From Candidatus Omnitrophota bacterium (GTDB taxonomy: Bacteria; Ratteibacteria; UBA8468; B48-G9; JAFGKM01): a stretch of DNA of 32,898 nt. Of this stretch, positions 1 through 32,888 are shown piece after piece. Where the stretch lies: NCBI GenBank assembly GCA_023819375.1, contig JAMWDI010000004.1, forward strand, positions 194,190 to 227,087, in the 5' to 3' direction. The position numbers were made by a program, and so were the translations under genes. Position 1 is the stretch's first letter. Each line of letters starts with the position of its first letter. The notes beneath the pieces were generated by a model. The model did not search any database and had not been told where the DNA came from. It saw only the letters and a program-made list of their open reading frames with translations.

Positions 1-1625
1 TCATTATCTTTCTCTCTTAAGTTTCTATATCCAAAATATTCAGGACTCATAGATTCACCCTTATATAAATTCGGGTCAATATCTTTATTTGGCTTAAATG
101 CATCTGGAAATAATTTCTGATATAAATCAAGACATGAAAAAAATCTGTAAGATGAGGGGACTGAACCCAAAACAAAACTTATTTTATAATTTTCTTTTGG
201 TCTTATAGCAATCCTTAGTAAATAACTCAAAATTCCTGTGTTTTTATTTAAATATTTGAAAGATGTTTTTTCATATGAAAAATATTGATATGGGTCTCTT
301 CCAAGAATTATTCCAGAATTTTCATCGTATAAGGCAATAAATGGAATCTGATATGGATATAAAGCCCCATAAATTGTTGGTTCATAGATTCTTTCTACAT
401 AATCTTGAGGATTTTTATAAAATTCACATCCATCATAATAAAAAAACTCCTCATTTAAATTACAGGGAAGGTTAAATTTTATCTCAAGTTTTTGAACTTT
501 ATCTTTTTTATTTTCAATAAATATATGCCAAAATATTGCATCTTTTTCTGGTTTTATTTTATTTTCAATTTTTATTTCCTCATTACTCTTTTTTGATATT
601 AAGGAGTTTTTATTTAAATATAAATTTTCTGTTTTTAATGCAACTTCTTTAAAATCTTTGTTTCCATCGAAAACAATAATTGGTTCAATTTTAGTCTTTT
701 GTTTCTCTTTTCTTATAAAATTTTCAATTTCAAGGATTTCAAGTTCTTTATTTAATGAAAGTTTTAAATTGCCTCCTTTAATAAAGACCATATCTTTTTT
801 TATTTCTATAGAAGGTTTTAAATCTGAAACTTTATATAATGGTAAATTCCAGTTGTTTCCAAGTTTATATTCCTTCCACGTTGTAAGAAATTTTTCAATA
901 CTTGGTAAAATATACTCATCTAAAGAAACTTCATGTAAATCATCCCATATAAATGCAAATTCTCCTTCTGATTGTGTTTGCATATAATATCTTATTTTTT
1001 TTATATTTCTTGGATCACCTTCTCCTTTTGTTAGTCCCCCTCTATAAGGAGAAGCAGGATTTACATTGAATGAAAATTCAAGGGGATCGCCTAAACTTCC
1101 CCACATTCCTAAAGTTGCTACATGCCACCAACATACCCAATTATGTCTTGCAACAAGTTTATTATTTATATCATAAAATTCTATTCCAAAATTTGCATGT
1201 TTTGTTCCACCTATTATATCAGGTCCTTCCCATTGTCCTTTTATCGGTCTTATCCAGAATTTAAAATTTTTGCCTTCAAAATTCATAACTTTGTATTCTT
1301 TTTCTACCCATATCATAGGGAATTTACTTTCTTTTATTTTCTTAACTTTCCATTCAATAAGTAATGAACCTTCTCCCTCTTTTTTTAAACCTTTCTCAAT
1401 ATATATTTTTGCATCACTAATCCCTTCTTCATATCCAATCTTAAATCCGTCTATTTTGTCAAAACTCTCTTTAAATAATTCTTCTGAATTTAAACCAAAA
1501 GAAATTAAGAATAAAAATAATAAAAAATTTATTAATTTTTCTCCTCCTTTTGCTCTTTTAATTACTGTTAGATAAGTAATCAGATAAACAAGAAGTTCTA
1601 TTAATATAAATTCTCTACTTTTCAT
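1..1625 (-). CDS. Large secreted hydrolase-like protein, binding-like domain plus catalytic region (partial, runs off window start)
   Basis: The reading frame is open from the ATG at 1625 to the window edge (541 codons), so the C-terminus is missing. The ATG has a good ribosome site (GAGGAG, 5 nt spacing) and overlaps the end of the upstream gene by 11 nt. Residues 6-13 read FILIELLV, a degenerate prepilin leader. After a hydrophilic KRAKGG stretch (itself coded by an AGGAGG sequence) comes a second hydrophobic signal-like segment at about 31-42. A jelly-roll, carbohydrate-binding-like region follows (about 45-200), then a beta-rich domain with YDENSG at 433-438 and an IDP motif near 517. The same YDENSG and IDP order occurs in the 12562-15291 gene, so the two are related. 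The catalytic barrel expected by that comparison lies beyond the edge. Specificity is unknown. The real start might instead be near 1531, but only a non-standard ATA codon is available there. Confidence 0.75.
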   Translation of the reverse strand, partial: MKSREFILIELLVYLITYLTVIKRAKGGEKLINFLLFLFLISFGLNSEELFKESFDKIDGFKIGYEEGISDAKIYIEKGLKKEGEGSLLIEWKVKKIKESKFPMIWVEKEYKVMNFEGKNFKFWIRPIKGQWEGPDIIGGTKHANFGIEFYDINNKLVARHNWVCWWHVATLGMWGSLGDPLEFSFNVNPASPYRGGLTKGEGDPRNIKKIRYYMQTQSEGEFAFIWDDLHEVSLDEYILPSIEKFLTTWKEYKLGNNWNLPLYKVSDLKPSIEIKKDMVFIKGGNLKLSLNKELEILEIENFIRKEKQKTKIEPIIVFDGNKDFKEVALKTENLYLNKNSLISKKSNEEIKIENKIKPEKDAIFWHIFIENKKDKVQKLEIKFNLPCNLNEEFFYYDGCEFYKNPQDYVERIYEPTIYGALYPYQIPFIALYDENSGIILGRDPYQYFSYEKTSFKYLNKNTGILSYLLRIAIRPKENYKISFVLGSVPSSYRFFSCLDLYQKLFPDAFKPNKDIDPNLYKGESMSPEYFGYRNLREKDN

Positions 1626-2679
1626 ATTTTCTCCTCTTTTTTAAATAATTTTCAAGAGCAATTATTCCAAAAAATGTAGATATATCTCTTTGAAAAGGAA
1701 CCCATTTATTATCTTTAAACAATTTTGAATGGTAAAATTGACCATCTTGCAGTTGATTGTCAAGAATAAATCTTAGACATCTTAAACCTGATTCAAGATA
1801 TCTTTTTTCATTAAATAATAAATATGTTTCCAACAATATGATAGCACACATAGCAGTTGCAGTTCCATCATTTCCTTCGCGGTTTTCTAATCTCCATGAA
1901 CCATCTGTTTCAATTCCTGCTGGTATACTTCCATCCCATAATTGTAATCTTAAAATTCTATCAACTGCTCTTATAAGTGGTGGTATTAAATATTTTTCTC
2001 TTAAAAATTTATATGCCATTAAAATTGGATAAGTGAACCAATATAATGTTCTACCAGAAGATGGTTTTATTTCTTTAAAATAGTAATGACCACAATACCA
2101 ATTACCTTCTAAATCTTGATTTTTAATTAAATAATCAATCTGGTCTTTAAAAACTTTTAAATATTTTTCTTCTTTTGTTTCTTCATATAACATCAAAAAA
2201 CTTGCATCATCATGTATTGGTAAAGGATTTATATGTTCCCATTTCTCTATATCAAATAACTGTCCTATTACTCCAGGTGAATGAAGATTTTTAATTATCC
2301 AGTCAGCAGCAAGTTTTGCACTTTTTAAATATTTTTCTTCTTTTGTTTCTTTATAAATTTCTATTATTCCAGAAAGACATTCAAAGATATCACTTGGAGC
2401 AATTTGATTTTTTGATGTATATGCAGGTGTCTCATATGCACCATATAAGGGAGAATTTTTATTAAGATACTGTAAACTTAAAATAAAATCAGCACATCTC
2501 TTTGCTCTCTCAATTAGTATATGTTCTTTTGTCCTTCTGTAAATTGATAAAAGTGCTCTAATGCCTTCTCCATCATGCCATATGAAATCTCCATGAAAAC
2601 AGCCATTTTCTTTCTGTAAGTTCAATACCCATTTTTTTGCTTTTTCAATTGCATTAATAATTTCTTCTTTTTTAATCAT
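1615..2679 (-). CDS. Alpha/alpha-toroid enzyme with six QxxG-type repeats (glycosidase-, lyase- or terpene-cyclase-like fold)
   Basis: 354 aa with no signal peptide, so probably cytoplasmic. Six helical-hairpin repeats can be read at about residues 14-30, 62-82, 124-142, 181-200, 239-256 and 300-318. Most contain a Q-x-x-(D/N/E)-G turn, such as LQKENG, LQLWDG and NQLQDG. This spacing is typical of alpha/alpha toroids, a fold shared by six-hairpin glycosidases, some polysaccharide lyases and squalene-cyclase-like proteins. A conserved-looking HDD lies at 156-158. The location among secreted hydrolases favours a role in oligosaccharide breakdown, but no catalytic signature assigns a family. The start overlaps the upstream gene by 4 nt (ATGA), implying translational coupling. 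Confidence 0.8.
   Translation of the reverse strand: MIKKEEIINAIEKAKKWVLNLQKENGCFHGDFIWHDGEGIRALLSIYRRTKEHILIERAKRCADFILSLQYLNKNSPLYGAYETPAYTSKNQIAPSDIFECLSGIIEIYKETKEEKYLKSAKLAADWIIKNLHSPGVIGQLFDIEKWEHINPLPIHDDASFLMLYEETKEEKYLKVFKDQIDYLIKNQDLEGNWYCGHYYFKEIKPSSGRTLYWFTYPILMAYKFLREKYLIPPLIRAVDRILRLQLWDGSIPAGIETDGSWRLENREGNDGTATAMCAIILLETYLLFNEKRYLESGLRCLRFILDNQLQDGQFYHSKLFKDNKWVPFQRDISTFFGIIALENYLKKRRKYEK
2155..2351. repeat. Perfect 29-nt direct repeat inside the toroid gene
   Basis: Positions 2155-2183 and 2323-2351 are identical on the plus strand, 168 nt (56 codons) apart. On the minus strand both encode the same peptide, ETKEEKYLK, in successive toroid repeats (residues 110-118 and 166-174). 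The identity covers synonymous positions, so this looks like recent duplication or gene conversion rather than only protein-level conservation. Confidence 0.85.
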
Positions 2680-4073
2680 ATTTCTTTTTTTAAACCAGTA
2701 AATTCTCTTGCTATTTTAAATATTTCTCTCTCTTTCTCCTCTGATAAGTTATGAAATGGCTCTTTTTCCAAAAGTTTTTTTGTCTTTTCTTTTGCAATTT
2801 CAAGTTCAAAACCAAATTTTATTTTATCAAAATTAACTATATTAAAAATTTCTGGAAAATACATCTGACTTCTCATATTTTCAACTGTTTCTTTAAGTTC
2901 TAAAAAACTGCCTCCTATACCAACTTTTTCTATTAATTCATAAGAAATTTTCTCTTCATTAACTTCTATACCTTTAAAAAATTGATTTAACATCTCACAT
3001 ATTTCCGCATCTATAACCATTTGTTCAAGACAGCCACAACTTCCAGCAGGTCCTAAAACACCAATTCTAAAACTTACTTTTTTTGTATCATTGACCATTA
3101 AAGAAATCAGAGATGTAAAAACTCTCTGAGATGCTGCCATAATCCCTGGAGTAGGTGCATCTGTATCTCCTAAATGTCCTCCTTCTGGAATAAGTCCATA
3201 AAATCTACAAAAATCAGATATCGCTGCATTCATAATAACTGTTTTTGGATTTGCATAATTTCCGCAACCAGTCCTCATATCCATACAAATTGGATTCCCG
3301 CCATAACTTCTTATTGGTTGGTTGAAAATATAATTTAATATCCAGCCAGAAATAACTTCTGCATTACATAATGTTAATGTTCCTGCAAGAAAAAGTGGAC
3401 CTGTTCCACCAGCAACTGTCATTGGAGTACCAAAATTTACTGTTAGACCCATATTTAATGCTTCATATGCTATCTCAAGAGCATCTTCTGGATATCTTAA
3501 AGGAGAAGAGATAAAACATTGATATCCTGGCTTTTCTCTTCCTGCTATTTCACACATTTCAACAATTGGTTTTAAACTTTCTTTTTTTAATATAGGTGCA
3601 CTTGATGGTTTTATACTTCTTGTTAAAGAAATTGCCCAGCCCCAGATATCCTCATATGGAAAGCAATCCATAGGAAGGAATAGAATACTATTATTATATA
3701 CCTGAGAAAGTTGATTTCCTATCCTTAATGCTTTTTCAGCATCTTGTAATGTCGGTTTTCTTCTTCCCTTTTCTAAATCATAAATATTCGGAGTAAATCC
3801 ACCAACAACACCTTTAATTTCAATTTTTTCAGATATATTTATTTCCCTCTTTGTCTTTCTTATATTTTCAATAACTTCATCAATCAAATCTATAGGAAAT
3901 TTTACTATCTGATTATTAAAGTCAACATTGCATCTTGAACTTAAAAATTTTAAAAATTTCTCATTTGGGATTTTGACACCAATTTCGGAAAGAATCTTCA
4001 CTGAGTAATAATGAATTTTTTCAATTTCTTTTTTACTTAACACTTTATATTCTGCTTTTGGATTGAAAAACAT
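2676..4073 (-). CDS. MttB-superfamily (trimethylamine methyltransferase-like) protein, non-pyrrolysine type
   Basis: 465 aa, near the usual length of COG5598/MttB family proteins. Recognisable features are the N-terminal helical SVKILSEIGVKIP segment (about 29-41), the glycine-rich GTPMTVAGGTGP barrel segment and the late VLGPAGSCGCLEQMVIDAEI segment, which occupies the place of the substrate-pocket region in the family. The frame has no internal TAG, so this is a non-pyrrolysine member. Characterised members of that class demethylate quaternary amines such as glycine betaine and pass the methyl group to a corrinoid protein. No corrinoid protein or methylcobamide:THF methyltransferase gene lies nearby. 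Start chosen at the ATG with AAAGGA upstream; it overlaps the preceding gene by 1 nt (TAATG). Substrate unknown. Confidence 0.88.
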   Translation of the reverse strand: MFFNPKAEYKVLSKKEIEKIHYYSVKILSEIGVKIPNEKFLKFLSSRCNVDFNNQIVKFPIDLIDEVIENIRKTKREINISEKIEIKGVVGGFTPNIYDLEKGRRKPTLQDAEKALRIGNQLSQVYNNSILFLPMDCFPYEDIWGWAISLTRSIKPSSAPILKKESLKPIVEMCEIAGREKPGYQCFISSPLRYPEDALEIAYEALNMGLTVNFGTPMTVAGGTGPLFLAGTLTLCNAEVISGWILNYIFNQPIRSYGGNPICMDMRTGCGNYANPKTVIMNAAISDFCRFYGLIPEGGHLGDTDAPTPGIMAASQRVFTSLISLMVNDTKKVSFRIGVLGPAGSCGCLEQMVIDAEICEMLNQFFKGIEVNEEKISYELIEKVGIGGSFLELKETVENMRSQMYFPEIFNIVNFDKIKFGFELEIAKEKTKKLLEKEPFHNLSEEKEREIFKIAREFTGLKKEI

Positions 4074-4783
4074 TATTCTTCCTTTAATTTAACATTATCA
4101 ACAATCCAGTTTGTTGTATCATAAATATAATTTAAAAATCCAACTTCAAATATTTCAATTTTCTCTGGAATTTCTGGTTTTCCTTCTATATTTAATGAAT
4201 CTTTTAAATCAAATTCAAAATCAAACCATATGTTTTGTTTTAAATCCCATGAACCTGTCTGAACATTTTTTCCAATCCATGATAAAAATGTATAATTATT
4301 AGGTATTATTCCTTCAAATGCATTTAACCTTTCTTTTTCATTATCCCATCCCCAAACTTTTTTTGCTTCCTTTATCAAATTAAATTCTTTTTCTCCAGAA
4401 TGGATAATAAAATAATAAAATCTATAAACTGGTTTTTCTTTTTCAATCGGTTTTCCTTTTAAATAAAATGAAACAAAATATCCATTATATCTTTGTAAAA
4501 ATTTAATTGAAAAACTCACTTTTAATGATTTTTTTGTATCCCATATTATATCCGGATTTATTTTTATCCCAGGAGAAAAGTATTTTGCTTCCTTGGCAGA
4601 AATATTTAAAGCATATTTCCCATCCCTTGCATCTTCAACTATTTTATATTCACATCTTCCATCAATCTTCTCCCATCCTGTTAACTTTCCTTCTTCAAAA
4701 CTACCATAAATATTCAAAATTTCACACTCTTTAGAAAAAATTAAAGTTAAAAGTATAAAAAGAAAAATTAAAATTTTTCTCAT
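4073..4783 (-). CDS. Secreted carbohydrate-binding-like jelly-roll protein
   Basis: 236 aa with a clear signal peptide (MRKILIFLFILLTLIFSKEC; cleavage around 17-19, and the Cys at 20 also makes a lipoprotein-like reading possible). The mature part begins with NIYGSFEEGKLTGW and contains GKYALNISA. That pattern, a stretch of GSFEEG...GW...DGKYAL, is typical of CBM4/CBM22-like and related beta-sandwich binding modules. No catalytic domain is present, so it is probably an auxiliary binding protein for the enzyme encoded just upstream. ATGA overlap (4 nt) with that gene; the GGAGG ribosome site lies inside the upstream coding sequence. Ligand unknown. Confidence 0.72.
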   Translation of the reverse strand: MRKILIFLFILLTLIFSKECEILNIYGSFEEGKLTGWEKIDGRCEYKIVEDARDGKYALNISAKEAKYFSPGIKINPDIIWDTKKSLKVSFSIKFLQRYNGYFVSFYLKGKPIEKEKPVYRFYYFIIHSGEKEFNLIKEAKKVWGWDNEKERLNAFEGIIPNNYTFLSWIGKNVQTGSWDLKQNIWFDFEFDLKDSLNIEGKPEIPEKIEIFEVGFLNYIYDTTNWIVDNVKLKEE

Positions 4784-7054: not shown

Positions 7055-7747
7055 TTATGGCTCATGTGTATAATCTCTTTTACTCATATCATAGTAGTAA
7101 TATTGAGGGTCTGGTCTTCCATCTGTATTAGGTGATACTTTTACCCAATCCCTTGTCTCCCATACTCTTACACTTCCATCAGCCCAAACAGCATTTATTC
7201 TTTTCCCTCTTGGAAGTTCTCTGTAATCACTATATGGTTTACCTGGCTCATGAAATTGACCATATTCATAAAGTATAATTGTTTTACTTGGAAATTTTAA
7301 TCTTTGAATGGGAACCTGTTGCCAGTCTTGTGTAAGTCTTGCATTTACATACTGGCATGTCCCCATATATGAATAATAATAAGCATAGGATTTCCCTAAA
7401 CCTGCTAAATAAGGACTTTTTCTCCATGAAGGACAAAGCCACACATCATTTGGATATTTTTTACCAACATATGGGTCAATTCCTGTAAAATAAATCCTTC
7501 CCAGTGCCTTAAAATGAAAAACACTGTATTGACCACTTTTATAATAATAACAACTTGGTAAATATCCATTATAGTCCTCTGCATACTGTAAAATAGCAAG
7601 TCCAAGTTGTTTTAAATTGCTCATACAAACTGCTTGTCTTGCTCTTTCACGTGCTATACTTAAAGCAGAAAATAGCATCGCAGCAAGAATAGCGATTACA
7701 GCAATCACTACCAACAACTCTATTAACGTAAACCCTTTCCTTCTCAT
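7055..7747 (-). CDS. Prepilin-like secreted protein (pseudopilin family), degenerate C-terminal motif
   Basis: 230 aa. The leader MRRKG is followed by [20 protein letters not shown]: a type IV prepilin/pseudopilin signal with the peptidase site after Gly5 and Glu at mature position 5. A conserved [22 protein letters not shown] helix follows, then a variable Tyr-rich, probably globular domain. Near the C-terminus [13 protein letters not shown] matches the end of the H-X9-DG motif, but the His is missing. The protein ends close to the start of the CBM9-like hydrolase gene, which follows directly. The start is fixed by an AAAGGAGGTGA ribosome site (7752-7762), inside which lies the stop codon of the upstream hydrolase gene. 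Such proteins are often numerous in PVC genomes; the role of this one is unknown. Confidence 0.9.
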
Positions 7748-7751
7748 AATA

Positions 7752-7762
7752 TCACCTCCTTT
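7752..7762 (-). promoter_or_regulatory. Ribosome binding site containing the upstream stop codon
   Basis: AAAGGAGGTGA, read on the minus strand, is a near-perfect anti-16S match. Its last three bases are the TGA stop of the upstream hydrolase gene, 4 nt before the ATG of the pseudopilin at 7747. Termination and re-initiation are therefore probably coupled. Confidence 0.8.
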
Positions 7763-9404
7763 CTTTAAAAATTTTTATCTTCTGCCATATACCACCATAA
7801 TTTGAACTATCAAATACTTTAATCACTATCTTATTTTTCCCTTCTCTAAGTTTTCCAGTTATATCTATTTTAAAAGGTATATTCCATCCAGTTTCTCCAA
7901 TATCATGTTCTCCTACAAAAATACCATTTATCCATACTTTACAACTTTCATCAACAGCACCAAATACAAGATATAAATTTTTATCTAAAATATCTTTGTT
8001 TACTTCAAATTCTCCTCTATACCATGCATATCCATCATAGTTTATTCCAAAATCTTCCCACCATTGCGCTATTTTTATATCTCTCCAGTTTTTATCATCA
8101 AAATCCTCTTTAAAATATCCTTCCTTCTCTCCTTTATTCTCTTTATCAGTAATGAATTTCCATCCATCAATTGGCAAATCCATTATAAATTCAAATTTAT
8201 TATAATATTCCTTAAAAACATTCTCTTCTTTGTATCTTGGATTCCTATTTATATACTCTTCTGTTTTTAAAGTTGGTTCCCACTTACCTATTAAATATTG
8301 TTTTTCTCTTTTTACTTCTTTCTCTTTCCAGTTTTTCCTCTTTACATTTCTAAAAGCATTTAAATATTCTTCAGGTATATTTGGACTTCTAAAAAATTTT
8401 GCTTTCTGTGAATATATCCATACATACTCATCTGCATATTTTAAAGCATATCCAAGAGAGTTCTCCCATTCTTCTGGTGTAAAGTAGTTATTTTCAAAAT
8501 CCTTTGTATCCCATACACTTCTATTATCAATCCATAAACCATATCCCATCTTTACTTGTTTTTTAAATTTATCTGGATATTTTGTTATCTTAATTCCTTC
8601 TTCAATTACCATTTTTTTTGCCTCTTTAAAACTTGCTTCATTTTTGTATCCATAACTTGGTTCATATCCATTATAAAAAATTGTCCTTCTATCAGATGCA
8701 GATAACATTCCTTCAAGATATGGAAAGAGTAACCCATAAAAAGCGTTTTTTAAATCACCTTTGTATTTCTTCATCTCATTTAAAATACATTCCCAACTGT
8801 AATAAAAATAAATCTTTATATTTGGAAAAATCTTATTTATTCTTTTTATTGTTTCTTGGCCCCTTTCAAATGCTTTTTGACAATACTCTTCCCAACTTTT
8901 ATCAAGATATTTTTCTTTATGAAATGGATAATGAAATAGATTATAATTATATGCTTCAAAATCAATTATTAAACCAACTGCTTTTATTTCTTTTGCTATC
9001 TTTGTAATAACTTCAATATTATTCAAAAATATATCCCATCTTTCATCATCAAACCAGGTAAGCCCTTCTGAATATCCACAATTTGGTTGAATTGTTAAAA
9101 ATATATCCTTTAAGTTCTTAAATTTTACATCCTTCATATCTTCTATCGCTTCTTTGAAATCTTCAAATTTAAACTTTCTCTTTCCCCCTAAGTTCCAACC
9201 CAAATCATTTCCTGTATATATAGGACCCTTTCTATCTATAGTAATTCTTAAACTGAACCCATCAATTGGAACTTTATCCATCTCTTTCCAGTTTTCTTTC
9301 ACAAATTCAGTTGTTGGGCTATCCCATCCAGAATATATTATTTTTTTATCATAAGAAAATAGAAAAATAACCCACATTATTAAAAATAAAATTGCTTTTT
9401 TCAT
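7752..9404 (-). CDS. Secreted TIM-barrel-like hydrolase with C-terminal galactose-binding-like jelly roll
   Basis: 550 aa from the ATG at 9404, chosen because AAAAAGGAGGGAAACA precedes it and it opens a signal peptide ([17 protein letters not shown]). An earlier ATG at 9431 lacks this. Residues about 18-360 form the region shared with the 18815-19891 protein: [32 protein letters not shown] (D148, E150), GYGLWIDN and EYVWIYSQ. The last 150 residues (from about DGWKF) resemble the sugar-binding jelly roll of GH2-type enzymes, with [21 protein letters not shown] and GKNKIVIKV. The fold is presumed; the reaction is unknown. It follows a pseudopilin gene with only a ribosome-site gap. Confidence 0.77.
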
Positions 9405-9418
9405 TGTTTCCCTCCTTT

Positions 9419-10207
9419 TTAATTTCCACACCAGGCTTGATTATACCAGTTGCCATAAATTGGATTGTTTGTTGCTTTAGGTAAATCTCTATCTCTTATG
9501 TATTCAGCATGTCCATCACAGTAAAGCCAGTTATTTCCTCCAACAGGTGAATTCTGAGGAAATGATAAAATTCTAATAATATTTGGATTATTATGTGTTC
9601 CAAAATAAACAAATCTAACACCAGGGTCATTTTGTGGACCTGCATAACAACCTGAATAATATCTATCTGTTATATCTGCTCTTCCAGTTTCTGCAAGTAA
9701 TATTGTCCTTGAAGGATTTTTAACAAGAGAAAGTTTTTTCTTACTTCCCAATCCCCATGTACTTAAATATGCATTTATAGCATAATCCCTTGCGCCAACA
9801 TATTTTCCATATAGCCATTCATTACTTACTCCCCTTCTTTTTTCAATATAACTTGGGCAAATAAACATCTTCACATTTTTCACATATCCATTGTAATATA
9901 ACCTTGCACTCCATGTTGGATATGTATTATTTGGTCCTGCATTTGGTGCTGGTGGTCCTCCCCATCCACTTAAAGTTAAACAATTGTCTGGAAAATAATC
10001 ATCATAATCCTGAACATACATCAGAATTGAAAGTCCAATCTGCTTTAAATTATTCAAACAACTTGTTTGCCTTGCTCTCTCTCTTGTTCTTGAAAGCACA
10101 GGTAAAAGCATAGAAGCAAGGATGGCAATTATAGCAACTACAACAAGCAATTCTATCAGTGTGAAACCATGTAGTTTTGAAAAACTCTTTGAAAATTTGT
10201 TCTTCAT
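9419..10207 (-). CDS. Prepilin-like secreted protein (pseudopilin family)
   Basis: 262 aa from the ATG at 10207, preceded by AGGGGGGG at ribosome-site distance. Upstream in-frame codons back to 10252 only translate promoter repeats (MYKMYNMYK) and are not counted. The leader is longer than in its relatives ([13 protein letters not shown]) and is followed by [20 protein letters not shown], then the [23 protein letters not shown] helix. The variable domain is rich in Asn, Gly and Tyr. The C-terminal region has a His in GTHNNP and ends [13 protein letters not shown], a stretched version of H-X9-DG. It is followed by the 7752-9404 hydrolase gene. It has its own promoter-like region and probably starts a transcription unit. 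Confidence 0.9.
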
Positions 10208-10252: not shown

Positions 10253-10265
10253 TATTTTTTGTCAA
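10235..10265 (-). promoter_or_regulatory. Candidate sigma-70-type promoter for the 10207 pseudopilin unit
   Basis: TTGACA at 10265-10260 overlaps the stop codon of the upstream gene. TATAAT at 10240-10235 follows after a 19-nt spacer, longer than the ideal 17. Two other TATAAA hexamers in the adjacent repeats could serve instead. The pseudopilin start lies about 28 nt downstream. Confidence 0.55.
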
Positions 10266-12565
10266 GTTTCTTTAAGCAATATATAATTTCCTTTTAAAAT
10301 CTTCAGTTTATCACCTTTCTTATAAATTTTATCCGTGAAAAAATCAATCCCTTCAATATTTAAAATTATCTCAATATCATTTTGATAATCTGTATTGTTA
10401 AGCAAATGATATATCTCTCCATTTTCATCTTTGTAAATATATGTTTTTATTTTTTCATTATCAAGTTGAAGGTTTAAAAACTTTAAATTTTCTTTTATTT
10501 TATTAAGTTTAATTTTTATAAGATTTTCCTTTGGTAAATTTTCCCATTCCTTTATCTTTTCTCCATCAGGATATATTGGTATTTCATCAAATGTATAAAA
10601 TATTTTTCCTCCTTTATTTACAAAATTTTTTAAATTTTCAAATTCCTCACAGTTTAAAACAGGTCTTTTTGGAGCATATAAAACAGGGATATCTTTTTCA
10701 ACATTTTTAAAATTATTTGTTATTCCATAGTCAATATTGATTTTAAAAAGATATTCATAAATTTCCTTCCATCTACCAGATTCTTCATTATCATAATTAA
10801 CAAGGTCATTAAAAACAATTGAAGTAGGAAGCCATATATAAACAGGTGGAACATGTTTTAATATTGTTGTTGCATGTGTTAATCTTGAAGAATAATAAAC
10901 CATTTTCATCCAATTTATTCTATCTTTTGAAATCATCAATTTATAAAAACTCCAAGGACATACTTTATCATTCAATGCACTTATTGCTGAAATTGTTGTT
11001 GTCAAATCTTTTTCAGGAGGTCCAAGATAAATTGGAGGCCAAATATAACTTTTTCCATTATATTCTTCTGCAATTTTTATTATTTCTGCAGTTGCCTTTG
11101 AAGAAGATGGTGAATTATATGACCAACTTGCTGAAATAAAATTGTTTTTTGCAATATAAACAGGAAAATAACAACTATGATTCATTGTTTCTGGTCCTAT
11201 ATCTCCATTTCCAGGCATAACTGGTATTTTCTCTAATGGTGTATCTTTTATTGCTTTTTTTACTAATAAAGGAACAGTATTTAATCTAAAGATATAAAAA
11301 TAATAAAAATTCCAACTATATGATGGTTCAGGTATTCCATTTTCTTTAACTTTTTCTGCAATATCATTCTTACCAATTTCTTTCAAATAATTTATAAATT
11401 CTCTTTTTGCTGTCTCACTATAATCACCAATCCCTCCTGAATACCAACATCCTCTTGGTTCATCTATCATGAAAAATTCTGCGTTTTTACCTGTTTCTTT
11501 ATAAATTTCCTTCCATTCATCATTTAAAATCCTTATTGCTTCAGGACAACAATTGCTCCATACATTCTTTATTGTAAAAAATTCTCCATTTTTCTTTCTT
11601 ATCAAATTCAATGTAACTTTCTCATTTAATCTTATATTTTCTGCATGTCCACTTATTGCATATTTCAATCTATGTTTTCTTATTTCATTTATTGAAACAG
11701 AGTATATGTCGCTTCCACCAACAAATCCATCTACTCCCATTTCTTTAAAACAATTCACAATTTTTTCTGTGTTTATATTTTTTGCCTTTTCAATTAACCT
11801 ATCTATTCTTCCAAGTCCACCAGAAGGGAAATATTCTCTATAATTTCTGTATTTCTTCTTTATCTTTTCAAATTTTTTATCCCAGTATTCAAAATCAACC
11901 CCTTCTTTTTTTAATTCTTCTTTTGCTATTTGCCAATCAGATATAAAATTTTTTTCAAATCTTTCCCAATTTTTCCTATAGTCATCCTCTGTAACCTTTT
12001 CAGGTATAACTTTAATTTGAATTGGTATATCTTTATCTGTTTTTTCACATATTATTCCAGAAATGTAAGGTAATTGATTTTCTGACTTTAATTTAATTTC
12101 AATTTTATCTTCAGAATCTATTGAGAATGTATAAATTTTTAATGTTCCACCCTCTGTAGATTCATTCTTAATTATCTCTTTTTCATTTACAAAAATATTA
12201 AATCCAAATCTGCTTTCTCCCGGTGAAAGATCTCCAATTATTATTGTAATTTTATATCTCCCTGGGATAACTTTGAATAAAAATGGTATATTGTTTATAG
12301 GTACTATACCATCACAATATAAATTGTAAAATGAATCTTTCTCCTCTGCTTTGTAATAAAAAGGATTTAAATAATCATCTCTTACCACTTCACTATTTAC
12401 ATTTCCTTTCCATCCATAACCAATTTTTTCATCATATTTTGTATCTTTTGTTATCTTTACAAAACCATACTCTAAAGGACTTTCTCTACTACCAAAATCA
12501 AATTTGTATATTTGAGAAAAAGTAAAATTAAAAATAAAAAGTAAAAAAATAAATATTTTTTTCAT
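10262..12565 (-). CDS. Secreted beta-galactosidase-like (GH42-like) candidate hydrolase with N-terminal binding domain
   Basis: 767 aa with signal peptide MKKIFIFLLFIFNFTFSQ. Residues about 19-190 start with YKFDFGSRESPLEYGFVKI, the FDFG...GY start typical of the malectin/rhamnogalacturonan-esterase N-terminal jelly roll. The middle (about 230-560) looks like a TIM barrel with FFMIDEP; D368 and E369 are catalytic candidates. Near residues 640-680 an NLKNFVNKGGKIFYTF segment resembles the class-I-amidotransferase-like trimerisation domain of GH42-type enzymes. The last part is beta-rich. The start overlaps the upstream gene by 4 nt (ATGA) and uses an AGGAGA site inside it. Family membership is inferred from architecture, not from an established motif set. 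Confidence 0.7.
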   Translation of the reverse strand: MKKIFIFLLFIFNFTFSQIYKFDFGSRESPLEYGFVKITKDTKYDEKIGYGWKGNVNSEVVRDDYLNPFYYKAEEKDSFYNLYCDGIVPINNIPFLFKVIPGRYKITIIIGDLSPGESRFGFNIFVNEKEIIKNESTEGGTLKIYTFSIDSEDKIEIKLKSENQLPYISGIICEKTDKDIPIQIKVIPEKVTEDDYRKNWERFEKNFISDWQIAKEELKKEGVDFEYWDKKFEKIKKKYRNYREYFPSGGLGRIDRLIEKAKNINTEKIVNCFKEMGVDGFVGGSDIYSVSINEIRKHRLKYAISGHAENIRLNEKVTLNLIRKKNGEFFTIKNVWSNCCPEAIRILNDEWKEIYKETGKNAEFFMIDEPRGCWYSGGIGDYSETAKREFINYLKEIGKNDIAEKVKENGIPEPSYSWNFYYFYIFRLNTVPLLVKKAIKDTPLEKIPVMPGNGDIGPETMNHSCYFPVYIAKNNFISASWSYNSPSSSKATAEIIKIAEEYNGKSYIWPPIYLGPPEKDLTTTISAISALNDKVCPWSFYKLMISKDRINWMKMVYYSSRLTHATTILKHVPPVYIWLPTSIVFNDLVNYDNEESGRWKEIYEYLFKINIDYGITNNFKNVEKDIPVLYAPKRPVLNCEEFENLKNFVNKGGKIFYTFDEIPIYPDGEKIKEWENLPKENLIKIKLNKIKENLKFLNLQLDNEKIKTYIYKDENGEIYHLLNNTDYQNDIEIILNIEGIDFFTDKIYKKGDKLKILKGNYILLKET

Positions 12566-15291
12566 TTTTTAATCTCTCCTAAACTGAATGTTGAATCGTA
12601 AACTCCAATATATTTAAGCATCTCTATTGTTTCTAAATTTTTCTCTCTTGGCTCGTCCCAATAATACCATAATGTATCTGCAACATGGAATTTGCCATAA
12701 TAGACATATTTTTTGTCAAGTAAATAAAGCAACTTCTTTATAGTCTCTTTCAATTCCTCGTTGGTTCCTTTTATTATCAAACTATTGCCCTCTATTCTTA
12801 TCTCTGGAATTTTATCTTCTTTTATTATTATCTTATATTCATTCTCAATTTTCTCATCTTCTATATTTTTTACAGGAATTATCAATTCTTTCCGATATTC
12901 ACTACCGTATTTATACCAGAACCTAAAATATTCAACTATCCTCTCAGCAAAATTCTTTAACCCTCTCTCTACAAAAATTACACTTTTATCATATGGGAAA
13001 TTTAATATCTCCTCTTCTCTTGATTTTATCACTTCTGAAACAAACTTAATCTTAACTATATCATTGACTTTAGGCTTAATCCCATAATTTAAATCCCTTA
13101 AATTTATCTTCTTCTCATTTATTTTTATCTCATTTAATTCATATCCATCTGGTTGATATAAAATAAATTTGTGATTTCTTCCCTTTACATCTAATAATTC
13201 TAAAATTAATTCAATAGAATCTGCTCTTTTTATCTCCTTAGTTTTTACTCTTATACCGTCCCCTTTATATCCACAGATTGATTTGAAAACTAAAAACTCT
13301 CTTGGCAAAATCTCTATGTCAAAAATTGTATTTTTATTGATATCAAATATATATTCTTTCCCAAACCAATTAGTTAAAATAGGAGAAAATCCTTCAAAAT
13401 ATTTTCCTAAAATTTCAACTTTCCCATTTATTCTATCTTTTGTGGAATTACTAAATGTAAAATACTTAACTTTTTTGCCAAATCTTGAAATAAGTAAATT
13501 TTCAGGTCCTTTACATCCTGTCAATGGTTCCCAGCCAGTATCTTTTATTTCAATAAGTAATGGTAATATTTCAAACATCTCTGGTATTCCTCTTATTAAG
13601 TCAGGATATGGCAAAATTCCCCAGTATAAACAACCAATTATCATATGTTTCCATAAGCCTCTATATGTATCAAGTATTTCCTCTTTTTTAAAATCTCTCC
13701 AGTTTATTCTCTCTGCAAATTTATCCCCTCTTAATGTTGAATGCATACCAATCACTTTTCTACCCATAAGTAATCTGTAAATGTTTAAAAGTTCTTTTGT
13801 ATTTTTATCATATGTATTTATCCATCGCCATTCAATCATTCCTCTATCACTTCTAAAAACTATCATATATGGAATAGGATGTTCTCCCCCTGGATTTATC
13901 CATATACCTACTTTATATTTTCCATCTTTTGTTCTCAATGAATGAATAAAATCAAAATTTTTAGCAATACCCACTCCTTCAAGGATATAAATACCTTTTT
14001 CATCCCATGCCTTTGGTAAATCAAGAATTTCTATTAGTTTTCCATAATATTTTCTATTTCCCATTCCACCAGAAGAATCATAAGCAATACCTGTAACTCC
14101 ATCTATCTCTTTGAAAATTCTTTTTAAACCATCTTCAAAAAATTCGCCAAACTTGCCTCCATAGGGAAACATCCAGTATGCTGTTTCATAATAGTATGAC
14201 ATAAATGATGGTTTATCAGTTATCTTTGATTCTGGAAATTTCTCATCTGCTAAGGAACTTTCACAACCATTCCAAATATAAAAACATCCTCCTACGTCAT
14301 ATTCTTTAACAAGTTTAAATCTCTCCTCCCTATATTTCCTATATTCTTCCGCAGTTTTTTGCCATTGAATTGACTTTTTGGCTACTTCTTCATTTGCAGG
14401 TTTATAATCCCAATACTCATCCCTACAATACCAATCTCCTTCTCTCTTCCATGGACCGTAACACCAACAAGTAGTTGCTCTTATCCTTCTTAAAATTTCA
14501 GGGCTCATACCAGAATAATAATAGCCAAAAGGAAATCCTGCAGTATCTACTCCTTCTACTATCTTTGGGTCTATTTCTTTATTATGTATGAAAAATTCGG
14601 AGAATGTATCATAATATTTCTGAATGAAATTTCTCCATCCAAAATCACTTTCACAAGCAAATATTAAAAACCTTATTTTCTCTTTATCTCTACTTTTTAA
14701 ATATAATCTTGTTGAATATTGAAAATTCTTATTTTTATCAAACTTGCTACATAAATATGAAATTAACTGTTCAGGAGTTATACCAATAGCAACTCCAGAA
14801 TTTTCATCATAAACACATGAAAGGGGAAATGTTGAATTTATATCATCTCTTTTAATTTCATTTTTTATTTCTAAATGCTCATATCTACCATCAAAAAATT
14901 TCCATCTCCCTTCAATTAAAGGTAAATTTATTCCAATTTCAATCCTTTTTTCTTTATCTTCAAGATTTTTTATATAAATATTCCAGATAATCAAATTATT
15001 TATTTTTTCAAAAGAATTATCTAACTCCATTGTTTCATCTTCGCTTTGCCATAAAAATCCATCTTTCCTTTCTTTTATTACTCGCCCTTTCTTTAAAATA
15101 ATATCTTTCTCTTTATCATAAATACAAAAATAACCATTTTCTTTCAAAAATTTCTTCCCTAAAAAATAAATATTAATTATCTCTCCAGTTTTCTTATCAA
15201 AAATAATCTCTGTATTTCCATTTTTTACTTGTATTTTTGCCTCAATTGATAAAATTAGAATAGAGAAGAAGATGAGTAATTTTTTTAACAA
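12562..15291 (-). CDS. Large secreted hydrolase-like protein, unassigned family
   Basis: 909 aa from a TTG codon at 15291. AAGGAGG (15297-15303) sits 5 nt before it, and the codon opens a signal peptide (LLKKLLIFFSILILSIEA). The ATG at 15318 would place the ribosome site inside the gene and overlap the upstream gene. An N-terminal beta-rich domain holds YDENSG (161-166) and an EIDP motif; both match the partial gene at the window start. A presumed TIM barrel follows with GGCFYIWNG, GIAYDSSGG (D405), ILEGVG (E438) and IEWRWINTYD. The C-terminal third is beta-rich. D405 and E438 are only candidates for catalysis. The preceding small binding-like gene seems to be the detached N-terminal domain of this protein. 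Confidence 0.72.
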   Translation of the reverse strand: MLKKLLIFFSILILSIEAKIQVKNGNTEIIFDKKTGEIINIYFLGKKFLKENGYFCIYDKEKDIILKKGRVIKERKDGFLWQSEDETMELDNSFEKINNLIIWNIYIKNLEDKEKRIEIGINLPLIEGRWKFFDGRYEHLEIKNEIKRDDINSTFPLSCVYDENSGVAIGITPEQLISYLCSKFDKNKNFQYSTRLYLKSRDKEKIRFLIFACESDFGWRNFIQKYYDTFSEFFIHNKEIDPKIVEGVDTAGFPFGYYYSGMSPEILRRIRATTCWCYGPWKREGDWYCRDEYWDYKPANEEVAKKSIQWQKTAEEYRKYREERFKLVKEYDVGGCFYIWNGCESSLADEKFPESKITDKPSFMSYYYETAYWMFPYGGKFGEFFEDGLKRIFKEIDGVTGIAYDSSGGMGNRKYYGKLIEILDLPKAWDEKGIYILEGVGIAKNFDFIHSLRTKDGKYKVGIWINPGGEHPIPYMIVFRSDRGMIEWRWINTYDKNTKELLNIYRLLMGRKVIGMHSTLRGDKFAERINWRDFKKEEILDTYRGLWKHMIIGCLYWGILPYPDLIRGIPEMFEILPLLIEIKDTGWEPLTGCKGPENLLISRFGKKVKYFTFSNSTKDRINGKVEILGKYFEGFSPILTNWFGKEYIFDINKNTIFDIEILPREFLVFKSICGYKGDGIRVKTKEIKRADSIELILELLDVKGRNHKFILYQPDGYELNEIKINEKKINLRDLNYGIKPKVNDIVKIKFVSEVIKSREEEILNFPYDKSVIFVERGLKNFAERIVEYFRFWYKYGSEYRKELIIPVKNIEDEKIENEYKIIIKEDKIPEIRIEGNSLIIKGTNEELKETIKKLLYLLDKKYVYYGKFHVADTLWYYWDEPREKNLETIEMLKYIGVYDSTFSLGEIKK

Positions 15292-15296
15292 ATTTA

Positions 15297-15303
15297 CCTC
15301 CTT
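15297..15303 (-). promoter_or_regulatory. Ribosome binding site that selects a TTG start
   Basis: AAGGAGG lies 5 nt before TTG at 15291 and 2 nt after the TAA stop of the upstream gene. It rules out the longer ATG start at 15318. Confidence 0.75.
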
Positions 15304-15304
15304 G

Positions 15305-15871: not shown

Positions 15872-16528
15872 TCATCTCCCTATCCATTCCCAATAATTAT
15901 ACGGAAATGGCCATTTTCTCCAGTTAACATGACCATCTAAATACAAATAATTTGCTCCATTGGAATGGCGGGTTGCTGAAAGATACTTTGTTGGAGAAAT
16001 ATCTGGCTTATCAGGAGTATCAATTCCAGGTTCATTCCCAGGTATTCCATCATTTCCATAAACAGTATAGTAACTAAAATAAAGATAATGAGCATCTGCG
16101 CACAAAATGGTAAGAGAGGGTTTTTTAAATGAAGCATATTTTATTTTATATCCTGGTGGTTGACCATTAGTTGCATCAAAATTTACACCAATTGAGCATC
16201 TATCCGTCCCTTCCCATGAATCTCTCTTGGAAGCAGAAGGGCACCGAACTATTTTGCCAAAATCTTCTGCATATTTTTTTGTAAGATATGGAATCAACAT
16301 ACGATAATATGGGCCAAGTCCTCCAACATCATATTCAAAATACATATATTCATGATCCTGTACATACATTAAAGTGGCAAGTCCAATCTGTTTTAAATTA
16401 TTCATACATACTGCTTGCCTTGCCCTCTCTCGCGCTTTAGATAATGCAGGCAACAACATTGCTGCCAAAATAACAATTATTGCCACCACCACAAGAAGTT
16501 CTATTAAAGTGAAACCAACCTTTTTCAT
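15872..16528 (-). CDS. Prepilin-like secreted protein with H-X9-DG C-terminal motif
   Basis: 218 aa. The leader MKKVG is followed by [20 protein letters not shown] and the conserved [23 protein letters not shown] helix. The variable region contains a CPSASKR segment. The C-terminus carries [14 protein letters not shown], an exact H-X9-DG motif. It is followed after a 3-nt gap by the binding-like gene. AAAAAAGGAAG lies before the ATG. The protein is probably processed by a prepilin peptidase and anchored in or displayed from the inner membrane; partner unknown. Confidence 0.92.
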
Positions 16529-17676: not shown

Positions 17677-18818
17677 TATTCAACTTCAATTTCATTTAAC
17701 AAATAAAAATCCTCTATTAATTTATTATTTTTCATAATCTTGAAATACCATCTGTAATTTCCTTTATTTGCCAAACCGTCAATTTCTCCTTTTGTTTTAT
17801 ATATTTTTTCTGGACTTAATATGTCAACAAAAACTCCTTTAAAATTCTCTCCAATCCCAAAATTTATTTTTAAATTCTCAATTCTCTGTGGAGATGTAAT
17901 TTCTAAATAATAAGGTATCTTTTCATCTACTTTAACCTTATTTTTTGATTCAAGATTTAATGCAATATTTTCTGATAAATAGGATATATTGTTTAAACCA
18001 GAAATAGAGACAAGATAAATTTTAAATTCATTTTCATTTTCAGGATAGATGACTTCTAAGGTTATACCCCTTTTTTCTCTTTCGTCTTCTAAATTTCCAT
18101 TCCACGAATAAAATATAACTTTTTTATCAATAAATTTTTTCTCAATTACAATACCACCAACCAATTTTTTATTTCTATCAACAATACAAAACCAGTTCTG
18201 TTTGGGTAAATAAAAATAACTTCCTACTTCTGGATGAAAAATTTTTATTCCATCTTTATCTATTATTTCTGTTATATTCCTTACCCTTTCAGTTGTTTTT
18301 GCAACAGGTATAATTAAAAAATCATCCTTATCAAACTCTCCACCTACGCAAAACATAGGATGAAACCAATAACTTTTTTTATCAAAATTACCTTTTACGT
18401 CTATTTCAACAATACTGCTGTTCTTGAAAACATTTACTTTCCTTTCTATCCCACTTATATTTTTTAGATTTATAACAACTTTTTCTTTGCTATTTTCTAA
18501 AATTTCATATTCATATTTTTCTTTTTTTAAATTTCCTCCGCCAGGCCATATCCAATCACTAATACCAGCAAAATTTGGTATTTCATATGTTAGACTTCCT
18601 GGGTAAAATTCTTTTTTAATTAATTTAAAAGGGAAAACTATTGGATTTTCTAAAAATTCATATTTTGAAATAACACCACCATATTGAGGGATTATTTCAA
18701 GTTCAATATAATCATTTTTAACAAAAATTTTGTCAAATTTATCTTTTATTATTTTCAGTTCACATTCACAGAAAGAAATTAAACTTATCAATAAAAAATT
18801 GAAATAAATCTTTTTCAT
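17676..18818 (-). CDS. Secreted galactose-mutarotase-like (aldose-1-epimerase fold) protein
   Basis: 380 aa with signal peptide MKKIYFNFLLISLISFCEC. The Cys at 17 or 19 gives it a possible lipoprotein character. YIELEIIPQYGGVISKYEF near residues 37-55 is the opening beta segment seen in galactose-mutarotase-like and related DUF proteins, where it precedes a large beta-supersandwich. WFHPMFCVGGEF and GSYFYLPKQNWFCIVD follow. The last 80 residues are a further beta domain. No standard pair of catalytic His residues could be confirmed, so it may bind or hydrolyse rather than epimerise. 4-nt ATGA overlap with the upstream hydrolase gene. Confidence 0.65.
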   Translation of the reverse strand: MKKIYFNFLLISLISFCECELKIIKDKFDKIFVKNDYIELEIIPQYGGVISKYEFLENPIVFPFKLIKKEFYPGSLTYEIPNFAGISDWIWPGGGNLKKEKYEYEILENSKEKVVINLKNISGIERKVNVFKNSSIVEIDVKGNFDKKSYWFHPMFCVGGEFDKDDFLIIPVAKTTERVRNITEIIDKDGIKIFHPEVGSYFYLPKQNWFCIVDRNKKLVGGIVIEKKFIDKKVIFYSWNGNLEDEREKRGITLEVIYPENENEFKIYLVSISGLNNISYLSENIALNLESKNKVKVDEKIPYYLEITSPQRIENLKINFGIGENFKGVFVDILSPEKIYKTKGEIDGLANKGNYRWYFKIMKNNKLIEDFYLLNEIEVE

Positions 18819-19903: not shown

Positions 19904-20560
19904 TTACCAACCGTGAATCCAACCAAGTGTTGGGTCATAACATATATAATCAGAAGTATTAAAACTTGCCCATATTACTGAACCATCTCCTCTTAATTGA
20001 TTTTGCCCAACTGGTTTTTTCAAAAACCTTCCATGATTATGGTAAGCTGTATTTGTCGTGTATGTTTCATCGACAAAAATTATTCTTTCTGAAGTGAAAT
20101 CTCTTGATTTTAACTGGAATAAATATTTTAAGTCAGTTCTATCTGATTTGCCTGTATATCCATAGAAAGCAACTCTATAACTCCATTGATCTCTAAACGG
20201 TAAGTAATCCGTTCTTTTTGGCCATCTTAGAGAGGGACTTGGACAGTAAAAAACGTTATAATTCTTATCATTTATATATGATGGAACAAGTGTATCCGCA
20301 AAAAATTGTTTAACTCCATTTATATAAGTTCCACCAGGCCATTTAACCTGCCAAGTTGAGAGATAATCTAAATACCACAATCTTCCATAATCTTCATAAT
20401 ACATAAACATAGCAAGTCCAATTTGTCTTAAATTATTCATACAAACTGCTCTTCTTGCTCTCTCCCTTGCCTTTGATAAAGCAGGTAAAAGCATACTGGC
20501 CAGAATTGCAATTATTGCCACCACAACTAACAATTCTATTAGTGTAAATCCTTTTTTCAT
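19904..20560 (-). CDS. Prepilin-like secreted protein, degenerate C-terminal motif
   Basis: 218 aa from the ATG at 20560, with AAAGGGGAGAA before it. Earlier in-frame codons only translate upstream repeats. The leader MKKG is the shortest of the set, followed by [20 protein letters not shown] and [23 protein letters not shown]. The variable domain is rich in Tyr and Trp. The C-terminal [11 protein letters not shown] keeps the DG of H-X9-DG but has no His at the right distance. It heads the minus-strand block and has a promoter-like region upstream. The next gene is a TIM-barrel-like hydrolase. Confidence 0.9.
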
Positions 20561-26894: not shown

Positions 26895-26896
26895 TT

Positions 26897-28552: not shown

Positions 28553-28576
28553 ATTTTCTCATCAAAAAGAGGTTTT

Positions 28577-32053: not shown

Positions 32054-32078
32054 CTTGCCCTCCTTTTCAACATATTTT

Positions 32079-32888
32079 TTATCTACCTTTATAAACTTGC
32101 GGGAAATACCTATTTGGTAATTCTTTTATAAAAGGTCTTTGTAATAATCTTTGTTCATTTAAGGCCTCTACATGACCATCAGCAAATAACATAGTAGCAA
32201 ATCCATTATGTCTTAATGCAGGAGCCCCAACTACTGGTTGTCCATATCCTAAAAGTGAAATATCTGAATCTAACCAGTAAATTTGACACCCATAATATTG
32301 AGGTGCACTTGCCAAAACATAGCCAGTATCTCCTGCTAAAATATATTTATCTGCTATAGGTAATTTTGAAATATTTAAAAAACAAATTACATTTCCTGCA
32401 TGTGTTCTATAAACATACCTATTAGCATATGGGGTTCCTTCTAACCACCTATATGCAAGTGTTATACCATAAGTTCTACTAATACCATCATTTATTCTAT
32501 ACAATCCACTTGGACATACAAAAACACTTCCTTTACCATAATAAGTATAATTTGTTGGCTGGCCATTTTCTGTATAATATGGTTTTCTTGAAGATGTGAT
32601 ATATCCTGGTCTCCATAAAAATTCTGTCCATGCCATTGTTTCAGTTCCTGATACTGTTCTTCCTGGTAATCTGTAAGAATATACATATGGAAAAGAAAGA
32701 ACCCATCCATCATAATCTTCTCCATACATTAAAAAAGCAAGCCCTATTTGTTTTAAATTATTAATACAAGTTGCCTGTCTTGCTCTTTCACGTGCCTTAC
32801 TTAGAGCAGGTAAAAGCATTGCTGCAAGTATCGCTATGATTGCCACTACTACAAGCAATTCTATTAATGTAAAACCTTTCCTTTTCAT
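32079..32888 (-). CDS. Prepilin-like secreted protein with H-X9-DG C-terminal motif
   Basis: 269 aa. The leader MKRKG is followed by [20 protein letters not shown] and [24 protein letters not shown] long, Tyr- and Gly-rich variable domain follows with a VCPSG segment. The C-terminal [17 protein letters not shown] is an exact H-X9-DG. AGGTGA lies 4 nt before the ATG at the very edge of the window, so its promoter is not visible. It is followed by the 1158-aa hydrolase gene, with only a ribosome-site gap of 25 nt. Confidence 0.92.

What the first reader, a model, noticed from the sequence alone, without database searches (positions are those of the whole stretch)
1..32888. Repeated pseudopilin-plus-hydrolase cassettes
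Five pseudopilin genes (starts at 32888, 20560, 16528, 10207, 7747) each lie directly upstream of a secreted hydrolase or binding-protein gene, with gaps of 25 nt or less. The N-terminal helix is shared among the pseudopilins, while the C-terminal domain differs in each. One pseudopilin per enzyme suggests that each forms a dedicated partner: an export adaptor, a surface anchor or a substrate-sensing subunit. The family is known to be numerous in PVC bacteria, but a one-to-one partnership with the adjacent enzyme is, to my knowledge, not described. This is the strongest candidate for a new system here.
Basis: partly seen in the sequence, partly recalled or inferred. Interest (0 to 1): 0.8.

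Follow-up and report, generated by a model that had tools for sequence, protein, structure and literature searches.

The report
Sugar-switched pseudopilin and secreted-enzyme cassettes
This bacterium arranges most of its secreted, sugar-polymer-digesting proteins in small operons that nearly always open with a pilus-like gene behind a sugar-sensing switch, but the pilus-like gene is swapped over evolutionary time and is not a matched partner of the enzyme next to it.

Summary
All five pseudopilins are present and each is followed within 25 nt by a signal-peptide protein. Genome-wide, the gene directly after a DUF1559-type pseudopilin carries a signal peptide in 34 of 38 cases, against 71 of 282 elsewhere (p = 1e-14).

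The 'dedicated partner' reading is only partly supported. Orthologous cassettes in sister genomes keep their pair. Enzyme paralogues at 35-47% identity, two of them in this window, carry pseudopilins no more alike than random ones, and orthologous regulators stand before unrelated pseudopilins. The C-terminal 'different domains' are one divergent family. Some unlike pseudopilins of one genome share nearly identical 5' DNA (synonymous codons 0.86-1.0; orthologues about 0.55), pointing to gene conversion.

Best explanation: glycan-induced exoenzyme cassettes whose pseudopilin joins a T2SS/T4P-type filament, most likely for substrate capture (inferred). Published proteomics of a verrucomicrobial alginate degrader shows a pseudopilin gene in an alginate-induced lyase operon.

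The parts
32079..32888 (-). DUF1559 (H-X9-DG type) pseudopilin, cassette A, 269 aa
   Evidence: PF07963 2.5e-9, PF07596 1.5e-11; AlphaFold2 model pilin-like, best PDB match T. thermophilus PilA4 Z 5.2, rmsd 3.3 over 115 residues
28577..32053 (-). secreted 1158-aa protein with DUF6259 (glycan-active by its company; function inferred)
   Evidence: signal peptide by heuristic; PF19773 8.9e-14; no clear PDB relative
32772..32898 (-). 127-nt repeat over RBS and 5' end of the pseudopilin; identical to the start of contig C10 and the end of contig C7; contig end
   Evidence: exact 127-nt overlaps
19904..20560 (-). DUF1559 pseudopilin, cassette B, 218 aa
18815..19891 (-). secreted 358-aa protein, 44% identical over 362 aligned columns to the 559-aa protein of cassette D
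   Evidence: signal peptide; paralogy
17676..18818 (-). secreted 380-aa protein, second enzyme slot of cassette B
   Evidence: signal peptide; no Pfam match
16540..17676 (-). GFO/IDH/MocA oxidoreductase between cassettes B and C
   Evidence: PF01408 2.7e-26
15872..16528 (-). DUF1559 pseudopilin, cassette C, 218 aa
15305..15868 (-). secreted 187-aa protein
   Evidence: signal peptide; no Pfam match above cut-off
12562..15318 (-). secreted 918-aa protein of cassette C
   Evidence: signal peptide; no Pfam or PDB match
10262..12565 (-). secreted 767-aa protein with weak galactose-binding-domain match
   Evidence: PF21254 0.0017, below cut-off
9419..10207 (-). DUF1559 pseudopilin, cassette D, 262 aa
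   Evidence: model shows pilin-like helix, C-terminal part low confidence
7752..9404 (-). secreted protein with GH2 sugar-binding domain, cassette D (559 aa from GTG 9431, shorter from ATG 9404)
   Evidence: PF02837 1.1e-13
7055..7747 (-). DUF1559 pseudopilin, cassette E, 230 aa
4780..7065 (-). secreted 761-aa protein with CBM9, cassette E
   Evidence: PF06452 2.5e-10
4073..4783 (-). secreted 236-aa protein, CBM4/9-like below cut-off
   Evidence: PF02018 0.0051
1584..1625 (-). decayed 5' end of a pseudopilin gene, in frame with the following secreted protein
   Evidence: nucleotide match score 29 against own pseudopilin 5' ends; 300 random stretches reach at most 20
3..1583 (-). secreted protein (1205 aa in all, continues left of the window) behind the decayed pseudopilin stub

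Best explanation
These are glycan-inducible exoenzyme cassettes: a sugar-binding transcription factor (LacI, GntR-Peripla_BP, sometimes ROK), then a DUF1559 pseudopilin, then one or several Sec-exported glycan-active proteins. Shown: the arrangement, its genome-wide frequency, its inheritance as a unit between sister species, and exchange of parts over longer times. Inferred: oligosaccharide relieves or activates the regulator; pseudopilin and enzyme are made together; the one prepilin peptidase cleaves the pseudopilin, which inserts into a T2SS/T4P-type filament for which the genome has several sets of parts; the variable outer domain binds or holds the polysaccharide at the surface for the enzyme and for uptake, a job like that of SusD in Bacteroidetes loci. 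The conserved 5' segment of the pseudopilin gene also acts as a recombination joint: gene conversion homogenises it between some copies of a genome, and crossovers in or near it can put a new pseudopilin tail and enzyme behind an existing switch.
For: Pseudopilin followed by signal-peptide protein 34/38 vs 71/282. 15 of 19 Peripla_BP_3 regulators in the genome end <250 nt before a pseudopilin on the same strand. 11 of 13 CBM9 proteins sit in pseudopilin-led operons, the other two at contig ends. Followers include GH123, GH39, GH42, GH2, NAGLU, GH67N, DUF4838, pectate-lyase-like and lectin domains. Machinery: 3 secretins, about 9 T2SSE-type ATPase matches, 1 prepilin peptidase. Orthologous cassettes are conserved with regulator, e.g. 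own L033 vs G001 L182: regulator 81, pseudopilin C-term 84, enzyme 73%. Pseudopilin model resembles type IV pilins. Synonymous-codon homogenisation of the 5' segment. Independent proteomics: in Verruconatronum alginivorum a PulG-like pseudopilin gene lies in the operon-like cluster up-regulated on alginate with PL15/PL39 lyases, another pseudopilin is up-regulated outside it, and the genome has 67 homologues (PMC13274419).
Against: No binding or expression data for this organism. Substrate capture by the pseudopilin is an inference: the model of its C-terminal domain is of middling confidence and gave no ligand hint. Pseudopilin tails do not track enzyme families, which also weakens any tight functional link. 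At least one large secreted protein (window 1625) persists with its pseudopilin decayed. In the named wider PVC set the enrichment is absent (13/45 vs 71/278) and in Victivallales only weak (4/9 vs 13/64).
Confidence: 0.5

Rival explanations
1. Each pseudopilin is an enzyme-specific adaptor or tip subunit that lets the T2SS export its neighbouring enzyme.
For: Tight adjacency and co-inheritance of orthologous pairs; followers have Sec signal peptides and the genome has secretins.
Against: Enzyme homologues at 35-47% identity carry pseudopilin tails at background similarity in 3 of 3 cases, although orthologous pairs show similar divergence of tail and enzyme. Other secreted proteins in the same operons (918, 767, 380 aa in the window) have no pseudopilin of their own.
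Confidence: 0.15
2. The pseudopilins are interchangeable: each operon simply adds a pseudopilus subunit so that secretion capacity rises together with secreted enzyme, with no specificity.
For: Near-invariant N-terminal helix, poor tracking of tails with enzymes or regulators; exchangeability implied by reassortment.
Against: Tails are maintained at 57-87% identity in orthologous cassettes, so they are under constraint; 44 diverged tails are hard to explain if any would do.
Confidence: 0.2
3. The pseudopilin anchors the enzyme at the surface, like a minor pilin carrying cargo.
For: Adjacent, presumably co-expressed and both exported.
Against: No fusion found: the one apparent fusion (L006) is a run of N. 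Tails do not track enzymes.
Confidence: 0.08
4. No functional link to the enzymes: the pseudopilin gene is a multicopy family that spreads by gene conversion and marks recombination joints, and its position behind regulators is a by-product.
For: DNA-level homogenisation of the 5' segment and 127-nt repeats at contig ends; stubs and frameshifted copies.
Against: 15 of 19 sugar regulators directly upstream and alginate-induced expression of a pseudopilin-bearing operon in a cultured member of the superphylum (PMC13274419) argue for selection on the arrangement; most reading frames are intact.
Confidence: 0.07

Closest known systems
Alginate-induced operon of Verruconatronum alginivorum (Verrucomicrobiota, PMC13274419, 2026)
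   Same: PulG-like pseudopilin gene inside an operon-like cluster of secreted polysaccharide lyases, induced by the polysaccharide; 67 pseudopilin homologues in the genome
   Different: Single operon described; no genome-wide regulator-pseudopilin-enzyme rule, no tail exchange and no 5' gene conversion reported there
DUF1559 (SBP_bac_10, PF07596) expansions of Planctomycetes and other PVC bacteria (PMC2754498: 74 in Rhodopirellula baltica; PMC4807772)
   Same: Same protein family and similar multiplicity
   Different: In the broad named set here, dominated by planctomycetes, the gene after the pseudopilin is not enriched for signal peptides; those papers treat the family as solute-binding or of unknown function
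Bacteroidetes polysaccharide utilisation loci (SusC/SusD)
   Same: One sugar-responsive regulator, a surface glycan-handling protein and CAZymes per locus (general knowledge)
   Different: Here the recurrent non-enzyme is a pseudopilin; SusC/SusD were not looked for genome-wide
R64 shufflon and pilin antigenic variation (general knowledge)
   Same: Constant N-terminus with variable C-termini of a pilin, recombination involving the constant part
   Different: No silent C-terminal copies found: apart from one frameshifted gene, C-terminal hits lie in genes with an N-terminus
T2SS major pseudopilin GspG/PulG
   Same: GFTLIE cleavage motif, long N-terminal helix, pilin-like model
   Different: About 44 copies, placed with sugar regulators and exoenzymes outside the T2SS/T4P clusters, with a DGH-type C-terminal family

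Membership tests
DUF1559 pseudopilin family (PF07596 with PF07963) | Prepilin cleavage motif and hydrophobic helix (PF07963 above cut-off) | tested here: met
   all five
DUF1559 pseudopilin family (PF07596 with PF07963) | PF07596 above curated cut-off | tested here: met
   all five; 46 of 47 matches over cut-off genome-wide
Type II secretion pseudopilin | Machinery present: secretin, GspE ATPase, prepilin peptidase | tested here: met
Type II secretion pseudopilin | Pilin fold of the globular part | tested here: inconclusive
   model mean pLDDT 72.5, best Z 5.2 to PilA4; C-terminal loops below 50
Type II secretion pseudopilin | Assembly into a pseudopilus and need for enzyme secretion | not testable with these tools
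   needs mutants or imaging
Polysaccharide utilisation locus (Bacteroidetes type) | Tandem SusC/SusD pair | not tested
   none seen in the Pfam scans of window genes, but no genome-wide search was made
Polysaccharide utilisation locus (broad sense: regulated cluster of CAZymes) | Sugar-responsive regulator next to secreted glycan-active proteins | tested here: met
   genome-wide; in the window itself no regulator is visible
Dedicated one-to-one partner pair | Pseudopilin relatedness follows enzyme relatedness | tested here: not met
   holds only between orthologous cassettes; fails for 3 of 3 paralogue pairs at 35-47% enzyme identity
Shufflon | Silent C-terminal cassettes without N-terminus | tested here: not met
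   profile of the C-terminal domain hits only genes with an N-terminus, plus one frameshifted copy

The most novel reading that the evidence does not exclude
In this lineage the pseudopilin is the universal surface component of glycan-utilisation units, a SusD-like role played by a filament subunit, and the homogenised 5' segment of its gene is a recombination joint by which sugar switches, filament tails and enzymes are re-sorted into new units.
Probability: 0.35. Interest if true: 0.8.

Novelty: new variant of a known kind. Interest (0 to 1): 0.6.

Why it matters
DUF1559 pseudopilins are among the largest gene families of PVC bacteria and their job is unknown. A genome in which nearly every sugar-sensing regulator is followed by such a gene gives the family a testable role in glycan degradation, and suggests that the substrate of uncharacterised pseudopilins and enzymes could be read from their switch. 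The 5' gene-conversion result helps to explain why unlike copies can share the same start and why the assembly breaks there. A one-to-one partner model should not be assumed.

Tried and rejected
Fusion idea: the 1297-aa ORF L006 2561-6454 looked like a pseudopilin-enzyme fusion but its second part is a run of N. Generic gene conversion of all N-termini: most pairs have synonymous codon identity near expectation, mean 0.43; only a minority of pairs are homogenised. Shufflon-like silent cassettes: not found. Broad PVC pattern: the 79 named loci showed no enrichment (13/45 vs 71/278); many planctomycete loci instead have what looks like aconitase after the pseudopilin. Victivallales: 4 of 9 vs 13 of 64, not significant (a first script missed these genes because its motif was too strict). 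PDB sequence searches of three secreted proteins found no clear relative. Foldseek gave no match with E <= 0.001 for two pseudopilin models; absence of a lectin match was not taken as evidence. Literature searches found no description of the regulator-pseudopilin-enzyme rule.
Full report
Observation. All five match PF07963 and PF07596 above cut-off. The window is the right end of contig C9 (194190-227087) of a 1.73-Mb, 13-contig genome with 47 PF07596 matches and 59 PF07963 matches. The organism has no name here. A same-genus genome, G001, has contigs of 43169 and 23038 bases, equal to JAMWBY010000001.1 and JAMWBY010000013.1, deposited as Candidatus Omnitrophota bacterium DG_2.bins.143.Tibet; the same order includes G023, which shows the same matches as candidate division TA06 bacterium ADurb.Bin131.

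Is it more than chance. I fetched stretches around every pseudopilin and seven 20-kb controls, called genes with a longest-ORF rule and signal peptides with a simple charge-plus-hydrophobicity rule (both my own, so error-prone). The gene directly after a DUF1559 pseudopilin carries a signal peptide in 34 of 38 cases, against 71 of 282 other co-directional pairs, Fisher 1.3e-14; in the control stretches the rate is 18 of 100. Most followers are longer than 500 aa. In eight related genomes pooled it is 38 of 57 against 83 of 234, p = 2e-5; contigs there are short and often end in these genes, and single genomes are mostly not significant.

The missing third part. Upstream genes looked like sugar-responsive regulators, and of 25 that I picked, 11 have a GntR and 7 a LacI DNA-binding domain, 2 are ROK, 2 AraC and 1 an ECF sigma factor. 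Because that list was picked by eye, I made an unpicked count: of all 19 Peripla_BP_3 regulators in the genome, 15 end less than 250 nt before a pseudopilin on the same strand; two more have one or two genes between; two have none. The expected fraction is 0.35%. From the enzyme side, 11 of 13 CBM9 proteins of the genome lie in pseudopilin-led operons and the other two are at contig ends. Followers carry GH123, GH39, GH42, GH2, NAGLU, GH67N, DUF4838, DUF6259, pectate-lyase-like, lectin and CBM domains. In the window itself no such regulator is seen: the 20560 pseudopilin is divergent from an acyl-CoA synthetase-like gene, the 16528, 10207 and 7747 ones lie inside a long operon, and the 32888 one is cut off by the contig end. 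The end of contig C7, which carries a GntR-type regulator followed by a pseudopilin start, overlaps the window's end by exactly 127 nt, but overlaps contig C10 by the same 127 nt, so the join is ambiguous.

Are the pairs dedicated. Comparing cassettes within and between genomes gives a two-sided result. Orthologous cassettes keep regulator, pseudopilin tail and enzyme together, with similar divergence: 81/84/73% for own L033 and G001 L182, 83/66/77% for L002 13546 and L181 8966, and others. But enzyme homologues at lower identity do not keep the tail. Window enzymes 18815-19891 and 7752-9431 are 44% identical over 362 aligned columns while their pseudopilin tails score 43, below the background mean of 59. 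L001 2887 and L008 6301 (35% over 644) score 43. G001 L177 and own L015 have regulators 60% and enzymes 47% identical, yet tails score 50. Regulators at 81% (own L001 13459, G003 L168) and 67% (own L028, G003 L153) stand before tails at background. Faster evolution of tails could explain part of this, but orthologous pairs do not show it. I read this as linkage over short times and exchange over long times.

What the tails are. One profile made from 19 tails finds 44 stretches in the genome, all in genes with a pseudopilin N-terminus apart from one frameshifted copy. So the tails are one family with hypervariable loops, not different domains, and there are no silent tail cassettes. AlphaFold2 models of two window pseudopilins have mean pLDDT 72.5 and 71.1; the first aligns to type IV pilins, best T. 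thermophilus PilA4 at Z 5.2, rmsd 3.3 over 115 residues, which is a moderate value. No fold-based hint of a ligand emerged.

The 5' segment. Over the first 38 codons the mean synonymous codon identity between pseudopilins of the genome is 0.43, so the conserved helix is mainly protein-level selection. A minority of pairs are nearly identical at DNA level although their tails are at or near background similarity: window 32079 with L027 (1.00), L020 2568 with L020 7732 (0.97), in G001 L177 with L181 8966 (0.94), in G003 L157 6357 with 11826 (0.89). Shuffling codons within columns gives 0.01 to 0.14 such pairs per genome on average, and at most two in any of 200 shuffles, against 1 to 6 seen in five of the six same-genus genomes and none in the sixth, G005. 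True orthologues of cassette pseudopilins between species share only about 0.46-0.59 at these sites, whereas orthologues of the stand-alone pseudopilin L032 share 0.67-0.76 and are not homogenised. This is the pattern of gene conversion or recombination in the 5' segment within a genome. Some of these pairs touch contig ends, where assembly could mislead; the L020, L157 and L177/L181 8966 cases lie inside contigs. Two other contigs, C1 and C13, end in an identical 127-nt stretch inside their secreted-protein genes, again two different switches leading to the same enzyme segment.

Decay. At 1584-1625 the start of the 1205-aa secreted protein reads MKSREFILIELLV; its DNA matches pseudopilin 5' ends with score 29 against a null maximum of 20. 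No standard start codon follows the internal ribosome-binding-like AGGAGG, so the stub may now supply the start. L002 7411 is a regulator followed by a frameshifted 26-codon pseudopilin stub, and C2:343285-343909 is a frameshifted copy.

Mechanism. The genome has three secretins, several GspE-type ATPases and one prepilin peptidase, so the pseudopilins can in principle be processed and assembled. Co-expression behind a sugar switch is the best-supported step, though itself inferred from gene order. The specific job is inferred. Enzyme-specific export is disfavoured by the exchange data; substrate capture fits a tail that varies with locus but is constrained between orthologues; a non-specific secretion booster remains possible. 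Proteomics of Verruconatronum alginivorum shows a PulG-like pseudopilin gene in an operon-like cluster up-regulated on alginate together with PL15 and PL39 lyases, a further pseudopilin up-regulated outside it, and 67 homologues (PMC13274419; one replicate per treatment). That paper reports substrate induction of such an operon in another phylum of the superphylum, so the association itself is not wholly new; the genome-wide switch-pseudopilin-enzyme rule, the exchange of tails and the 5' homogenisation are not described in the papers I could search.

Reach. In 79 named loci, mostly planctomycetes, the enrichment is absent, and in two Victivallales genomes it is weak, although single cases of a LacI or GntR regulator followed by a pseudopilin occur there and in a verrucomicrobial contig, L089. 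The rule is strongest in the window's own genome and genus.

Noticed in passing
L122, L131, L134, L136, L140, L147, L148: In many Phycisphaerae-type planctomycete contigs a DUF1559 pseudopilin is directly upstream of a gene that looks like aconitase (N-terminus ...DGKIAAGEQIGIRIDQTLTQDATGT; family named from memory).
   Followed up: no
32772-32898 and contig ends C7, C10; C1, C13: Contig ends share exactly 127 nt, so the assembly broke at pseudopilin 5' ends and at a repeat inside secreted-protein genes.
   Followed up: partly
26897-28552: Single reading frame joining an M28 peptidase domain to a GNAT acetyltransferase domain.
   Followed up: no
2676-4073: MttB-family (trimethylamine methyltransferase-like) gene inside the glycan operon, next to a GH88/pectate-lyase-like protein (1615-2679).
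   Followed up: no
C2:343285-343909 (L005) and L002:7340-7411: Frameshifted pseudopilin and a 26-codon frameshifted pseudopilin stub behind a regulator.
   Followed up: partly
L022 6126-7644, L159, L188, L202, L227: Separate tandem pseudopilin arrays of two or three genes without an adjacent enzyme, conserved between genomes; a different class from the cassettes.
   Followed up: no
L032:11047-11748 and orthologues L163, L179, L190, L204: A conserved stand-alone pseudopilin with a fixed upstream gene, 67-85% tail identity across species, not part of an enzyme cassette.
   Followed up: partly
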